Virus record (IMG/VR): IMGVR_UViG_3300035138_000092
Coordinates: 1 to 23,474 of that record
From: a virus
Reading direction: 5' to 3' (one strand)
DNA length: 23,474 nt
The position numbers and the translations under genes are program-made. Below the pieces are notes generated by a model that had not been told where the DNA came from, searched no databases, and saw nothing but the letters and a program-made list of their open reading frames with translations. This document shows positions 1,204 to 17,963 of the stretch, in pieces; position 1 is the first letter of the stretch, and every line of letters starts with the position of its first letter.

Positions 1204-1728
1204 ATGGCAAAAAAGACAAGGAAAAAGACTGTCAGAAATCCAAAATATTTTTGTACAGGCACAAACAAAAGTGGTAATCCTTGCCAGAAATATAGGATGA
1301 AAGGGAAATTGACTTGTAAGACTCATCATGTGGGTAGACCATTAAAACACGGTAAATACAGCAAGGTATTAGTAAAGGAACTTGCTGAAAAGATTGAAGA
1401 AGTTAAACAGGATAAAAGATATTTACAGTGGGAAAATATTCTTGCTACCACATATTCAATAATAGAGCATCTAGGAGAACGTATATCTGAGGAAACACTC
1501 ACTCAGGAGATGGGTGATGTTCTTATAAATAGATTAAACATGTATGTCAAACAACTGGAAACGTTTAATAAAGTGCAACACGGTGAAAGGCATATTGTGA
1601 CGTACGAAACAATCGATATTGTTTTGAAACAGTACGTACATATCATACAGGAAATAGTACCGGATGCTAAACTTAGAGACAAACTCATCGAAAGAATCGC
1701 TCAATTACGTATACCAGAGGACAGTTAA
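1204..1728 (+). CDS. putative small terminase subunit with N-terminal Cys/His cluster, 174 aa
   Basis: The gene lies directly before, and overlaps, the large terminase gene, the usual place of the small subunit that recognises phage DNA. The basic N-terminus contains a Cys/His cluster (C17, C27, C38, H41/H42, then HVGRPLKHG), similar to the CxxxxG.PC..H.G motifs of many phage DNA-packaging proteins. Residues about 60-165 are strongly helical and charged, suited to oligomerisation. No ribosome binding site is evident; the leader is A/T-rich. The assignment as TerS rests on position and composition, since small terminases diverge too far for clear motifs. An alternative is a zinc-binding adaptor. 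Confidence 0.55.
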   Translation: MAKKTRKKTVRNPKYFCTGTNKSGNPCQKYRMKGKLTCKTHHVGRPLKHGKYSKVLVKELAEKIEEVKQDKRYLQWENILATTYSIIEHLGERISEETLTQEMGDVLINRLNMYVKQLETFNKVQHGERHIVTYETIDIVLKQYVHIIQEIVPDAKLRDKLIERIAQLRIPEDS

Positions 1729-3322
1729 TATATATAAAAATCAAAGAAAATCCTCTGATATTATTTCTTTCAGAAAATGGATTGATAAATATTATCGCAT
1801 ACCATTAAGTAATAGAGCACCACAGGGAACACTGGTATTTTCTGATAAACCCTACCTTAAAGACTTATATAAATGCACTGATAAAGAGATAGTGGTAATG
1901 AAAAGTGCTCAAGTGGGTATAAGTGAATGGGCAATCGCACAATCAATTTATCATGCTGATCAGTATGGTGCTATTGTGTTATATACATTTCCTACTGCAG
2001 CACAAATAGGTAATTTTGTTTCAGGACGTGTTAATCCTGTTATAGAGAACTCAATGTATATAAACCAGTTAATAGGTAAATCCAGGTACTCCAAAGATGA
2101 TATAGGAATGAAATCTATTGGTGGTGCTTTTTTATATTTTAGAGGTTCAGTTGATAGAAACCAAATAATCAGTATAAACGCTGATATGGTTGTGTTGGAT
2201 GAATTGGATCAGATGATTCAAAACAGTATCGATACTATAGAGAAACGTTTATTATCAAGTGCATACCAGTGGAAAAGGAAACTGAGTGCACCGACATATG
2301 TAGATTTTGGAATAGATGCTGAATATGCAAAAAGTGATATGCGCCAATGGTTTATTAAATGTCCCAAATGTCGTAAAGAACAAACACTAAGATTTCCACA
2401 ATCATTTCGAATAGATCCACCACAGGATGGATATTGGTGCGATAAACACAAGTGTGACGGTAAACTTAATCCAACAAAAGGTATGTGGATTAAAACTGTT
2501 CCTGAATCCGATATAACCGGTTATCATGTAGTAGGTATGATGAATCCCAGAACTAACGCATTAAAAATTATTGAGAAATACAATGATCCACGCACTAATA
2601 TAATGGAATTTTACTGGCAGGATATTGGGATTCCATACAATCCCAAAGGTTCCAAAATGACACGTGATATTTTAGATGCATGTCGGGCAACCGATAAAGA
2701 AGTTCTTGCTGAAATTGGAAACCATTGCAGAATGGGTGTTGACGTTGGAAAAGTCCTACACGTGAGAATAAGTGAACTAGTGGATGAACGGAAGGTTGCC
2801 CGATATATAGGAACTGTTAAAGAATTTGAGGATCTGGATAAATTGATGCGACTATATGATGTGGATGTATGTATTATCGATGCATTACCAGAAACAAGAA
2901 AAGCTAAAGAGTTTCAGGAACGATACAAAGGAAGAGTATGGTTAGCTTATTATACTCCAATAAAAGGTGGACGAATATGTGATTTTGATCCTAAAGAACC
3001 AATAGTAAAGGTAAATCGCACACTTGCACTTGATCATGTACATGCTGAATTAGAAGGTAGAGAACAGGTGCTACCGAAAAATATAGACGATATTGAAGAT
3101 TTTTATGATCAGATGTGTGCTTTGACTAAGATTGAGAAAACTGATCCTAAAACCGGTAATAAATCATATCTTTATGTAGGTGGCAGTGTTGATGAACAAG
3201 GTAAACCTACAACTGTTGAGAGACCTGATCATTATATGCATTCCAGTGTGTATGAGTTCATAGCCTGGCAAGCGAAAGTATATAGAACATTTACTGGTAG
3301 AAGGGCAAGGATATTCGGATGA
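1664..3322 (+). CDS. terL: terminase large subunit, GpA family, 552 aa
   Basis: This is the motor ATPase and nuclease that packages DNA into the prohead. The deviant Walker A KSAQVGIS begins at K80 and, as in lambda gpA (KSARVGYS), has its lysine at the start of the loop. Walker B is VVLDELD with D179/E180. A Cys pair motif follows (CPKCRKE, then C and H), a feature of GpA-type enzymes. The C-terminal RNase H-like nuclease shows RMGVDVGK with D360 and VCIIDALPE with D406. The length fits. The start at 1664 overlaps the preceding gene by 65 bases; no other in-frame ATG precedes the ATPase core. A small membrane gene begins in the stop codon region (ATGA). Confidence 0.93.
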   Translation: MLNLETNSSKESLNYVYQRTVNIYKNQRKSSDIISFRKWIDKYYRIPLSNRAPQGTLVFSDKPYLKDLYKCTDKEIVVMKSAQVGISEWAIAQSIYHADQYGAIVLYTFPTAAQIGNFVSGRVNPVIENSMYINQLIGKSRYSKDDIGMKSIGGAFLYFRGSVDRNQIISINADMVVLDELDQMIQNSIDTIEKRLLSSAYQWKRKLSAPTYVDFGIDAEYAKSDMRQWFIKCPKCRKEQTLRFPQSFRIDPPQDGYWCDKHKCDGKLNPTKGMWIKTVPESDITGYHVVGMMNPRTNALKIIEKYNDPRTNIMEFYWQDIGIPYNPKGSKMTRDILDACRATDKEVLAEIGNHCRMGVDVGKVLHVRISELVDERKVARYIGTVKEFEDLDKLMRLYDVDVCIIDALPETRKAKEFQERYKGRVWLAYYTPIKGGRICDFDPKEPIVKVNRTLALDHVHAELEGREQVLPKNIDDIEDFYDQMCALTKIEKTDPKTGNKSYLYVGGSVDEQGKPTTVERPDHYMHSSVYEFIAWQAKVYRTFTGRRARIFG

Positions 3323-14487: not shown

Positions 14488-14551
14488 GCTGATAGCGGTG
14501 ATGGGTAAACATTATTGTGATGATACAATGAGATACAAAACCAATGATTAA
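14453..14551 (+). pseudogene. relic or duplicate of the MuF gene start, 32 codons
   Basis: From 14453 the frame reads MQKLELNPNQSKLI, matching the first 14 residues of the MuF-like protein at 15151 (MQKLELNPDQSKLI). The 42 bases differ at 5 positions, four of them in changes that leave the amino acid the same. After this the frame continues with AVMGKHYCDD and stops at 14551. It appears to be an old MuF start stranded by insertion of the YkgJ-like gene. Confidence 0.7.
14495..14517 (+). repeat. 23-bp direct repeat, copy 2
   Basis: Identical to 13418-13440. It begins exactly where similarity to the MuF start ends, so it marks a recombination junction. Confidence 0.9.
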
Positions 14552-15197
14552 ATGTGATACACATAAAGAACTTAAATCATATTTAGATAATATTCCACTT
14601 TTAACCAAGCAGGAAAAATTAGATATAATTAATCTTATAAAATTCAAACATGAGAAAATTAACAATTTAATGGATAAATGTGGAGAATTATCTTTAGATA
14701 TTTTACTTTGGGCTATGAAGAAAGTGGCTAATAAAAAATTGGAATTTGACACTTATTTAAAAACTAAAGAAAAAGAACCAGAATATATCTGCAAAAAATG
14801 TGGTTTATGCTGCAGGTGTACAACTGTTAATATAGATTGTTATAATATAAAAACTAAAGAATATTATCCAAAATATTTTAAAAAGAAGGATTTGAATCCC
14901 AAAATCCCTGAAGAGAAATTCATAATAAAAAACTGGAAAAGGATATCAAGAAAAACAGCGCGAAAATTAAATCCATATCATTTTAATACAACCAATAAAT
15001 ATAGCAATGGGAAAATGCCATATTATTATACTTGCAAACTATTAAAAGATAACAAATGTTCTGTGTATGAAGAAAGACCCGAAATATGTAGAAATCACAA
15101 ACCCGGGGATAGTTCATATAGCCCTGATTGTGGAATAAAGGTGATACCTGATGCAGAAGTTGGAACTGAACCCAGATCAAAGCAAGCTGATAACTGA
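14544..15197 (+). CDS. YkgJ-family CxxCxxCC metal-cluster protein, 217 aa
   Basis: The centre has ICKKCGLCCRCTT (around residues 82-94), the CxxCxxCC signature of YkgJ-type proteins, which bind zinc or iron-sulfur clusters. The second signature half follows: YTCKLLKDNKCSVYEERPEICRNH. Both are intact. The N-terminal 75 residues are helical and not part of the family core; between the halves lies a basic insert (KNWKRISRKTARKLNP). The C-terminal tail DAEVGTEPRSKQADN is read in another frame from the first 47 bases of the MuF gene, which it overlaps. The gene is enclosed by two copies of the MuF start. The biochemical role of YkgJ proteins is mostly unknown; some modify or assist protein maturation. 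Confidence 0.78.
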   Translation: MIKCDTHKELKSYLDNIPLLTKQEKLDIINLIKFKHEKINNLMDKCGELSLDILLWAMKKVANKKLEFDTYLKTKEKEPEYICKKCGLCCRCTTVNIDCYNIKTKEYYPKYFKKKDLNPKIPEEKFIIKNWKRISRKTARKLNPYHFNTTNKYSNGKMPYYYTCKLLKDNKCSVYEERPEICRNHKPGDSSYSPDCGIKVIPDAEVGTEPRSKQADN

Positions 15198-16911
15198 AAT
15201 TGATCTTTTCGCAATAGATTTGGTTGATCAGATAGATCTTACCAAATCAATCAAACCGCCTATTGATGAGTATGGACAGTTTCTATCAACACTTACCAAA
15301 TACTGGAACGAACAAGTAAGTAAAGCTGTCCAAGATGTAATACTCACAGCAAACCAATTTTTACGTACAGCACAGCTTAACGAACGTGTAATAGATTTAA
15401 TGACTGATTCATTCACTGAATACCTGGGTCCGGGATTAGCTGGCAGATCACAGGTAAGAGATGCTGTAAAGAATTTAATAACACAATCCTGGACTAAAGG
15501 AAAAGATCTTGCTTTTGCTCCCAGTGGATTAAAATGGAGTTGGCAATTAATTGATCAACGTGCTGTGAATCATCTTACAAGGGATACAATGTATTGGATA
15601 GGGAACCAGTATGGTAAAAATATTGGTCCCAAAATAGCTGAGATAACACGTAAAGTTGGTATTGAATCCGGACTTGGTAGACGTGAAGTGGGTAAAGCTT
15701 TAAGAGATGCTTTTGAAGGTGAGTTAAAGATACCGGTTGGTTTCAGAGGATCACCACTGAACTATTATACTCTTGTTGGTGCATCGGCAATGAATAGATC
15801 TAGGACATGGGGAAATATTACTGGATATCAAGAACGTGGAATTGCTTATTATAGATGGGAAGCTGCACTAGATGAAAGAATGTGTTTCCCCAAGGGAACA
15901 AAGGTTCTTACAGATAGAAAAGAGAAATCAATTGAAACTATTCAACCCGGATGGAAAGTATTCACTGACCAGTTGCGTTTTAAACGAGTTAAAGCTATTT
16001 CAAAAACCAAATACAAAGGTCAAATGAATCGAATAATAGCTAAAAACAAAAAGATTGAATGTACTTCAGATCACCTAATTATGATCTATCGCAATGATCA
16101 AATAATGTGGGTTGAAGCAAAAAATATAAAAAGGGGTGACTATCTTATAAAGCGAAAAACAGGTGGAAAATGTAAAGAATGCGGAAAAGAATATCATTTG
16201 CAACCACTCCAAAATCGTAAATTTAGTATTGAACGAATGAATTATTGTTGTCAAGAATGTTATAACAAATACAGACAAAGAAAAAACTGGACTGAAATTA
16301 CATGTAAGAATTGTGGTAAAAACAAAAAAGTTAGAAAAATATATGTTGATCGCAATCAATATAAATGTTGTAGTGAAAAATGTAGAAGAAATTATGAATT
16401 AAAAGGTTTAAAACCAGAAGATTTATATCAAATATGTAAAAGATGTGGCAAGAAATATAGAGCGAAACCCAAAGAAATTCTTAATAAGACAAGATCCTAC
16501 TGTTCAGAAGAGTGTTATCGCCCTCCACAATATTTAATATGCAAAAATTGTAAAATACGATTTAGATATGTTCCCAGTGAAATAGTACACAGACGATTTT
16601 GTTCAAATGGTTGCTACAAATCGTATACGGGAGAAACAAGGTTCCAGAAAAAGGTAAGAAAATTCATAGAATCAAAGGGTGTATTTATAGAAAATGAAGT
16701 TCAGTATAATCGATTTGTAGTTGATTTCTTCTTACCCATACACCAAATGGCGATAGAAGCTGATGGAACATATTGGCATTCCAAGCCAGGGATTAAGGAG
16801 CGAGATGCGAGAAAAGATAAACTATTAAAAGATAACGGAATTCAAGTTATAAGAATATCGGAAGAATGTCTTGAAAGGGATTTAAAAAAGCTGGGGAAAA
16901 TATTGAAATGA
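15151..16911 (+). CDS. MuF-like minor head protein N-part with intein N-half and nuclease, 586 aa
   Basis: Residues 1-244 are the N-extein, a helical head-morphogenesis protein of the Mu gpF/SPP1 gp7 kind ending YYRWEAALDERM. Residue C245 starts an intein: block A CFPKGTKVLTD, block B IECTSDHLI, then WVEAKNIKRGDYLI. Residues 341-488 hold four zinc-finger units, each CxxC then CxxC or CxxxC (C341/344/367/370, C385/388/407/411, C429/432/451/455, C464/467/484/488). Residues 494-586 form a Vsr/PD-(D/E)XK-like nuclease (VVDFFLP with D525, AIEADGTYWH with E536, D538, H543, then RDARKDKLLKDNGIQVIRI), a plausible homing endonuclease. The frame stops at TGA 16909, inside the next gene's ATG. GGTGAT precedes the start. 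Confidence 0.88.
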   Translation: MQKLELNPDQSKLITEIDLFAIDLVDQIDLTKSIKPPIDEYGQFLSTLTKYWNEQVSKAVQDVILTANQFLRTAQLNERVIDLMTDSFTEYLGPGLAGRSQVRDAVKNLITQSWTKGKDLAFAPSGLKWSWQLIDQRAVNHLTRDTMYWIGNQYGKNIGPKIAEITRKVGIESGLGRREVGKALRDAFEGELKIPVGFRGSPLNYYTLVGASAMNRSRTWGNITGYQERGIAYYRWEAALDERMCFPKGTKVLTDRKEKSIETIQPGWKVFTDQLRFKRVKAISKTKYKGQMNRIIAKNKKIECTSDHLIMIYRNDQIMWVEAKNIKRGDYLIKRKTGGKCKECGKEYHLQPLQNRKFSIERMNYCCQECYNKYRQRKNWTEITCKNCGKNKKVRKIYVDRNQYKCCSEKCRRNYELKGLKPEDLYQICKRCGKKYRAKPKEILNKTRSYCSEECYRPPQYLICKNCKIRFRYVPSEIVHRRFCSNGCYKSYTGETRFQKKVRKFIESKGVFIENEVQYNRFVVDFFLPIHQMAIEADGTYWHSKPGIKERDARKDKLLKDNGIQVIRISEECLERDLKKLGKILK

Positions 16912-17045
16912 AAGATATAGATCTGAATAGATGGGAATTGGTTGAGGTTGAATCAAACAAGTCATATGAGGATGAGCTAGAAGTCTATGATATAGAAGTT
17001 GAAGATGATCATACGTTTATTGCTAATGGATTTATAGTACATAAT
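15883..17045 (+). mobile_element. intein with zinc-finger/Vsr-like homing nuclease, split over two frames
   Basis: The element begins at Cys1 (codon 15883) and ends at Asn (codon 17043-17045), before the Cys+1 codon at 17046. Splicing blocks are intact: A (CFPKGTKVLT), B (CTSDHLI), F (VYDIEVEDDHTFIANGF) and G (IVHN followed by C). The insertion point is the CPIC motif of MuF proteins, a conserved site, as is usual for inteins. The stop at 16909 and start at 16908 divide it into about 342 and 46 residues. The element is probably mobile as a homing unit. Confidence 0.85.
16881..16890 (+). promoter_or_regulatory. candidate -1 frameshift site (T TTA AAA AAG)
   Basis: In the frame of the first MuF gene the codons are TTA AAA AAG, containing both T TTA AAA and A AAA AAG, the heptamer used by E. 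coli dnaX. The -1 frame is open from 16875 to the end of the second MuF gene, so a slip here would join both. AAAGGGA sits only a few bases upstream, closer than the usual stimulatory spacing, and no strong downstream hairpin is visible. A-runs are common in this genome, so chance is possible. Confidence 0.4.
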
Positions 17046-17963
17046 TGCCCTATCTGCACTGAACTTGAAGGTAAGGAATGGAAAACTGAATGGGGAACCA
17101 AAAGAATTGAACAAGCAATGGAATTAACCAATCCTGAAGATATGAAAAAGCATATGCCCTGGATAGGGTTTGATGGTGGTAGGGCTTCTAAAGCTGGTTG
17201 GAAACCATCTGAACCAGTATATCCACAAGGAGTTAAGCTTTATCCACAATCAGGTATTCAAAAAGGCAGGGCAGCAGGTTTATTTATAAAAGATCCCGAT
17301 AGTGGGAAGAAAACTTATTTTGCAGGTAAAGATGGTAAATTGAAAGGTACAAAAGAGCTTGCTGATTTGGGTATAGTATCACCGCCAATTCATGCATTAT
17401 GCAGATGCAGCATCATTGAGTCAGTTGACCGAATAATAAAAACAATTACAGAAAAAATTACAATAATTTCCAATATAACAAATATTACCGATAGAGAATT
17501 AAATTACATCCTAGCAACCATAAAACAAATAAAACTACCCGAAGAAGGTATACTTACAATCAAGTTAGGTACTGAACCCGCAAAAGTCGATTTCAAAACT
17601 GGTAAAGATAAAAAAGGTTTATATATAAAAAGTCGTACAAGAAAATTAACAGGCTGGAAAACATACAGACAAGATGATCCTATTTTCAAAGAATATCTCA
17701 GGACAATGATTGAGCAGGGAATCTTACCGAAACCTGTTATTCCAACAAACGCTAAAACAATCGTTAAACTAACCAGTAAATCGTTTAATGATAAGATACA
17801 AGGGGTACCAGTCCAGTATGAGGGTAAAACGTTAAAAATGAGCCGGATATCGCATGATAAGTACGGTTTATTTATAGAGTTAGAAGACGTGGTTATATAC
17901 AAAAGATTTTTACCGGATAAGTTTAATGAAATTATCAGACAAATTAAGAAAAAGATATATTAA
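16908..17963 (+). CDS. intein C-half and MuF-like minor head protein C-part, 351 aa
   Basis: Residues 1-46 are the C-terminal intein segment with block F (VYDIEVEDDHTFIANGF) and block G ending H45-N46; C47 is the +1 extein residue. From there the C-extein reads CPICTELEGKEW, and later PPIHALCRCS, the two cysteine motifs typical of MuF proteins (CPxC and PPxHxxCRC). Spliced with residues 1-244 of the previous gene it gives a 549-residue head protein. The remaining C-terminal 190 residues are a variable domain (LPEEGILTIKLG, KKGLYIKSRTR). The ATG overlaps the previous stop (ATGA), and GGGG lies 11 bases upstream, so coupled translation is plausible. Confidence 0.87.
   Translation: MKDIDLNRWELVEVESNKSYEDELEVYDIEVEDDHTFIANGFIVHNCPICTELEGKEWKTEWGTKRIEQAMELTNPEDMKKHMPWIGFDGGRASKAGWKPSEPVYPQGVKLYPQSGIQKGRAAGLFIKDPDSGKKTYFAGKDGKLKGTKELADLGIVSPPIHALCRCSIIESVDRIIKTITEKITIISNITNITDRELNYILATIKQIKLPEEGILTIKLGTEPAKVDFKTGKDKKGLYIKSRTRKLTGWKTYRQDDPIFKEYLRTMIEQGILPKPVIPTNAKTIVKLTSKSFNDKIQGVPVQYEGKTLKMSRISHDKYGLFIELEDVVIYKRFLPDKFNEIIRQIKKKIY

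What the first reader, a model, noticed from the sequence alone, without database searches (positions are those of the whole stretch)
15883..17045. Intein in a MuF head protein with four zinc fingers and a Vsr-like nuclease, divided between two genes
Seen: intact splice blocks A, B, F and G and nucleophiles (C1, HN end, C+1), with the C-terminal 46 residues in a separate reading frame that has its own ATG. Known: split inteins with Vsr-like homing nucleases have been described in fractured phage genes from metagenomes; in those the nuclease is usually a separate gene. Here the nuclease is fused to the N-half and has an array of four CxxC...C(x2-3)C fingers not typical of inteins. Inference: a naturally split intein making a capsid-associated protein by trans-splicing.
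Basis: partly seen in the sequence, partly recalled or inferred. Interest (0 to 1): 0.85.

Follow-up and report, generated by a model that had tools for sequence, protein, structure and literature searches.

The report
Split intein with nuclease-fused N-half
In an uncultured virus, the gene for a head-assembly protein is cut in two by a self-splicing protein element that carries its own DNA-cutting enzyme; the two gene products probably join into one head protein, an unusual variant of a known kind of broken phage gene.

Summary
A class 1 intein (C1 at 15883, terminal HN ending at 17045, C+1 at 17046) interrupts a MuF-like head gene. IntN, four CxxC...CxxC fingers and a Vsr/EDxHD-like nuclease share one ORF (15151-16911). 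The 46-residue IntC and the C-extein form a second ORF (16908-17963) that starts on an ATGA overlap. Intein-free phage relatives align without a gap across the insertion site. Most likely this is a natural split intein of the 'fractured gene' type, trans-splicing into a 549-residue protein, with the homing nuclease fused to IntN. That layout is rare: in 52 distinct ATG-started split inteins sampled from viral contigs, only this locus and a PolB intein (L062, HNH nuclease) have it; elsewhere the nuclease is free-standing or absent. The IntC start position and the 4-nt overlap match other split inteins. Two rivals remain: -1 frameshifting at T TTA AAA AAG, or a private one-base indel in that A-run. 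No same-locus relative was found to settle it. The finger-plus-Vsr nuclease resembles a homing-endonuclease group described in 2025, so that part is not new. Splicing is predicted, not shown.

The parts
15151..15882 (+). N-extein of MuF-like head protein (244 aa, ends ...ALDERM)
   Evidence: phrog_13868 profile positions 138-246 on aa 131-243; intein-free homologues in phages DLP_3, LV6 and HATV-3
15883..16170 (+). IntN: blocks A (CFPKGTKVL) and B (TSDH), ending GDYLIKRKTGG; net charge +16
   Evidence: Pfam Intein_splicing, Hint_2, TIGR01445; charge
16171..16620 (+). four CxxC...CxxC zinc-finger-like repeats, probable DNA-binding part of the homing nuclease
   Evidence: CxxC at nt 16171, 16303, 16435, 16540 with matching second pairs; no Pfam family reached
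16621..16911 (+). Vsr/EDxHD-like PD-(D/E)XK nuclease domain, same ORF as IntN, stop TGA 16909-16911
   Evidence: MTES_1575 E 9.5e-11, DUF559 E 7e-8; PDB 3r3p I-Bth0305I E 2.7e-4; D, E, G, H, P, D invariant with nine relatives; Foldseek best hits I-Bth0305I and Vsr, weak model
16881..16890 (+). T TTA AAA AAG: -1 slippery sequence inside the ORF overlap, possible frameshift site or indel site
   Evidence: such heptamers are common in comparable overlaps; no stable downstream stem
16908..16911 (+). ATGA stop/start overlap linking the two ORFs
   Evidence: also used at 3319 and 7141 in this contig
16908..17045 (+). IntC (46 aa): block F YDIEVEDDH, block G FIVHN; net charge -11
   Evidence: TIGR01443 44 bits, Pfam Intein_splicing; M to block F 26 aa, other split inteins 16-25
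17046..17963 (+). C-extein of MuF-like protein, starts CPICTELEGK, contains PPIHALCRC
   Evidence: phrog_13868 positions 250-355, phrog_115 minor head protein E 0.0023; alignment to HATV-3 Mu gpF-like protein

Best explanation
A naturally split class 1 intein of the fractured-gene type interrupts a MuF-like head-morphogenesis gene just before the first Cys of its CPIC motif. Two coupled ORFs (ATGA overlap) give N-extein-IntN-fingers-nuclease and IntC-C-extein. IntN (+16) and IntC (-11) would associate through opposite charges, fold into one Hint domain and splice in trans (C1, terminal HN, C+1) to give a 549-aa head protein. The excised IntN-nuclease would act as a homing endonuclease that cuts intein-less MuF alleles, with the finger array adding DNA specificity. 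Shown by sequence: the domains, the splice motifs, the empty site in relatives, the two ORFs and the nuclease residues. Inferred: trans-splicing, nuclease activity, homing, finger function and presence in virions.
For: Both halves match intein splicing profiles in complementary parts. phrog_13868 runs 138-246 over the N-extein and 250-355 over the C-extein, and DLP_3, LV6 and HATV-3 align without a gap over DERM|CPIC, so the site is empty in relatives. Of 52 distinct ATG-started split inteins in viral contigs (this one included), the IntC start lies 16-26 aa before block F (this one 26), 31 overlap the upstream ORF and 8 use exactly the 4-nt overlap. L062 (PolB) has the same layout: IntN plus HNH nuclease in one ORF, ATGA, separate IntC. 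The nuclease frame ends within about 10 residues of where free-standing relatives end. ATGA coupling recurs in the contig, and the SD-like pairing before IntC (-5.5 kcal/mol) is average for its genes. IntC charge of -10 or lower over the comparable region is reached by 10 of 51 split and 3 of 67 cis inteins.
Against: No relative of this contig with the same locus was found, so conservation of the split is untested. IntN-nuclease fusion with separate IntC is rare (2 of 52). The C frame is open 10 codons upstream of its ATG, and the overlap holds T TTA AAA AAG (in-frame A AAA AAR expected 0.018 times per 10 codons here). IntC charge does not differ overall between split and cis sets (p 0.77). 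One intein with fused LAGLIDADG nuclease (L170) looks like a plain frameshift.
Confidence: 0.66

Rival explanations
1. Programmed -1 frameshifting: ribosomes slip at T TTA AAA AAG (16881-16890) and make one continuous precursor that splices in cis; the unshifted product is an N-extein-IntN-nuclease protein.
For: The heptamers lie in the right frame inside the only stretch where a -1 shift would join the ORFs; A AAA AAG is the known E. coli dnaX site (own knowledge).
Against: No stable structure downstream (z -0.33); no Rfam match. In 33 overlapping upstream-ORF/IntC pairs, 8 have an X XXY YYZ heptamer, mostly where it could not join the frames. A good ATG with ATGA overlap makes frameshifting unnecessary.
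Confidence: 0.15
2. A private one-base deletion in the A6 run (or an assembly error) broke an ordinary continuous nuclease-bearing intein; the split has no history.
For: The frames differ by one base at a homopolymer; L170 shows such a break in another intein; no relative shows the split at this locus.
Against: The break falls between nuclease and IntC, where natural splits lie; an ATG stands at the usual distance and exactly overlaps the stop. L170, by contrast, has no ATG there.
Confidence: 0.15
3. The intein is degenerate and does not splice; the two halves are made and used separately as head proteins.
For: None positive; there are no expression data.
Against: All splice residues and both motif halves are intact with a strong C-terminal motif score; the cut falls inside a conserved motif of the head protein.
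Confidence: 0.04

Closest known systems
Fractured genes with split inteins and EDxHD/Vsr homing endonucleases (Dassa et al. 2009, NAR 37:2560; text not held, known through citing papers PMC7891396, PMC12350094, PMC6892783 and own knowledge)
   Same: Split at the usual endonuclease site, Vsr-like nuclease lying between IntN and IntC, phage gene, overlapping ORFs; the layout was re-found here in L012, L016, L031, L036, L085, L088 and others
   Different: There the nuclease is its own ORF; here it is the C-terminal part of the IntN protein. The host gene here is a MuF-like head gene.
L062 PolB split intein (IMGVR_UViG_3300026518_000344)
   Same: IntN and homing nuclease in one ORF, separate IntC, ATGA overlap
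   Different: PolB host gene; HNH-type nuclease, no finger array
CapR/DUF4379-like repeats plus EDxHD/Vsr-outgroup homing nucleases in phage introns (PMC12350094)
   Same: Several repeats followed by a ~100-aa Vsr-like nuclease
   Different: Found there in group I and II introns; here inside an intein. Repeat relationship judged by layout only.
AceL NrdHF split intein (PMC7891396) and MIJ3 PolB split intein (PMC6892783)
   Same: Fractured phage gene, split intein, homing nuclease between the halves
   Different: Nuclease is a separate gene (GIY-YIG, HNH); AceL NrdHF is class 3
I-Bth0305I (PDB 3r3p)
   Same: Homologous catalytic domain (E 2.7e-4)
   Different: Mobile-intron nuclease; only the catalytic domain is solved

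Membership tests
Class 1 intein | C/S at position 1, TxxH in block B, block F D/H, terminal HN, C/S/T at +1 | tested here: met
Class 1 intein | Catalyses splicing | not testable with these tools
   needs expression
Naturally split intein | Two ORFs split at the endonuclease site, IntC of about 35-50 aa with its own start codon | tested here: met
   that translation is really separate is inferred
Naturally split intein | Split conserved among relatives at the same locus | tested here: inconclusive
   no same-locus relative found
Fractured-gene arrangement (Dassa 2009) | Homing nuclease coding region lies between the two intein-bearing gene halves | tested here: met
Fractured-gene arrangement (Dassa 2009) | Nuclease is a free-standing ORF (usual, though some fractured genes lack a nuclease) | tested here: not met
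   nuclease is continuous with IntN in a 586-aa ORF
EDxHD/Vsr-like homing endonuclease | PD-(D/E)XK Vsr-type domain with conserved E...D...ExxG...H | tested here: met
EDxHD/Vsr-like homing endonuclease | Cuts the intein-less allele | not testable with these tools
   needs biochemistry
CapR-like repeats + EDxHD outgroup (PMC12350094) | Three to five CapR-like repeats before a C-terminal Vsr-like domain | tested here: inconclusive
   four repeats present; no CapR or DUF4379 profile match
MuF head-morphogenesis protein | Homology and DxRxCPxC / PxHxxCRC motif pair, in a head-gene neighbourhood | tested here: met
   weak by profile (no Pfam Mu_F hit), supported by alignment and portal/MCP neighbours

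The most novel reading that the evidence does not exclude
The locus has two outputs: most translation ends after the nuclease and restarts at ATGA (trans-splicing), while a fraction slips -1 at T TTA AAA AAG to give a continuous cis-splicing precursor, so the ratio of head protein to nuclease-bearing half is set by recoding.
Probability: 0.1. Interest if true: 0.65.

Novelty: new variant of a known kind. Interest (0 to 1): 0.45.

Why it matters
It shows a layout between ordinary nuclease-bearing inteins and fractured genes with free-standing nucleases: the intein is already split but the nuclease still rides on one half. Together with L062, from another host gene and nuclease family, it suggests that a split between nuclease and IntC is viable and recurs, which bears on how split inteins arise. 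It also gives a split intein tied to a head gene, and a finger-array Vsr-like nuclease inside an intein.

Tried and rejected
Searches for close relatives with the exteins, major capsid protein, intein-nuclease and terminase in viral contigs, and with the exteins and nuclease in genome contigs, found none usable. A DNA pattern for inteins at the DERxC site gave one hit, L100, a chance match on the wrong strand. An internal start for a separate nuclease was considered and dropped: the first in-frame ATG after IntN (about 16237) lies inside finger 1. Downstream stem-loop for frameshifting: none. Rfam and tRNA scans were empty. IntC charge as a general marker of splitting: no overall difference. 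The structure model was too weak (pLDDT 55) to say anything about the fingers. The Dassa 2009 text was not available.

Full report
What was checked. The window is a 23,474-base IMG/VR virus contig with a terminase, portal, protease-like protein and major capsid protein. ORF1 (15151-16911, 586 aa) holds the N-extein, IntN, four CxxC...CxxC repeats and a Vsr-like nuclease. ORF2 (16908-17963, 351 aa) holds a 46-aa IntC and the C-extein. All splice residues are intact: C1, TSDH, YDIEVEDDH, HN, C+1. The finding's coordinates are right.

Host gene. The N-extein matches phrog_13868 up to position 246 and the C-extein from position 250. Proteins of phages DLP_3 and LV6 and the annotated Mu gpF-like protein of HATV-3 align over the joined exteins with no gap at DERM|CPIC. 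The site is therefore empty in relatives, and lies at the first Cys pair of the CPIC ... PPIHALCRC motif pair. There is no Pfam Mu_F hit, so the MuF label rests on these alignments, weak PHROG minor-head hits and the head-gene neighbourhood.

Nuclease. The last ~96 residues score above the Pfam MTES_1575 and DUF559 cut-offs, match I-Bth0305I, share D, E, G, H, P and D with nine relatives, eight of them free-standing nucleases of fractured genes and one (L025) a portal-protein domain, and a weak model finds I-Bth0305I and Vsr first. Repeats followed by a Vsr-like domain were described in 2025 for phage intron nucleases (PMC12350094). I found no CapR or DUF4379 profile match, so that link is by layout.

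Comparison set. Two DNA-pattern scans of viral contigs, together with loci, gave 52 distinct split inteins whose IntC starts with ATG. The patterns demand ATGA upstream of block F, so the set is biased and is not a census. Within it, the IntC start lies 16-26 residues before block F (this locus 26), 31 overlap the upstream ORF, 8 by exactly four bases. Most have a free-standing Vsr-like, HNH or GIY-YIG ORF between the halves, or none. IntN and nuclease share one ORF only here and in L062 (PolB, HNH nuclease, ATGA). L170 also has them joined, but has no ATG for IntC and looks frameshifted.

Split, slip or break. ORF2's frame is -1 to ORF1's and is open for 10 codons before its ATG; the overlap holds T TTA AAA AAG. 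In-frame A AAA AAR is expected 0.018 times in 10 codons of this window, yet among 33 overlapping pairs 8 carry such heptamers, mostly in a relation that could not join the frames, and no stem follows. The ATGA overlap is used twice more in this contig, and the SD-like pairing is average. I put a true split at about two in three, frameshifting and a private indel at about one in seven each. Without a same-locus relative this cannot be closed by sequence.

Charge. IntN is +16 and IntC -11, as expected for electrostatic capture of halves (principle in PMC11923092). IntC charge does not separate split from cis sets overall, though extreme acidity is commoner in split ones (10 of 51 against 3 of 67).

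Verdict. A new variant of a known kind: a fractured-gene split intein with the nuclease retained on the N-half. Splicing, homing and virion presence are predictions.

Noticed in passing
window 8183-9538: TROVE/Ro60-like RNA-binding protein (Pfam TROVE E 2e-17, phrog_850) in a viral contig.
   Followed up: no
L024 about 1822-1980, L025 1225-1383, L026 3057-3248: Portal-like proteins with a C-terminal DUF559/Vsr-like domain, not an intein nuclease; 45% identical to this nuclease over 53 residues in L025.
   Followed up: partly
L006 840-3101: Another MuF-like protein with an intein at the second Cys motif (HPN|CIC); the IntC frame has no ATG and no plus-strand nuclease ORF was seen in between.
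   Followed up: partly
L190 (reverse strand, block F at 2754 and 3974): One IMPDH/GMP-reductase-like gene apparently cut by two split inteins in a row.
   Followed up: no
L170 about 1300-3100: Intein with LAGLIDADG-like nuclease whose IntC is in another frame without an ATG; probably a frameshift break.
   Followed up: partly
window 14544-15197: CxxCxxCC zinc/iron-chelating family protein whose ORF overlaps the start of the MuF-like ORF by 47 bases.
   Followed up: no
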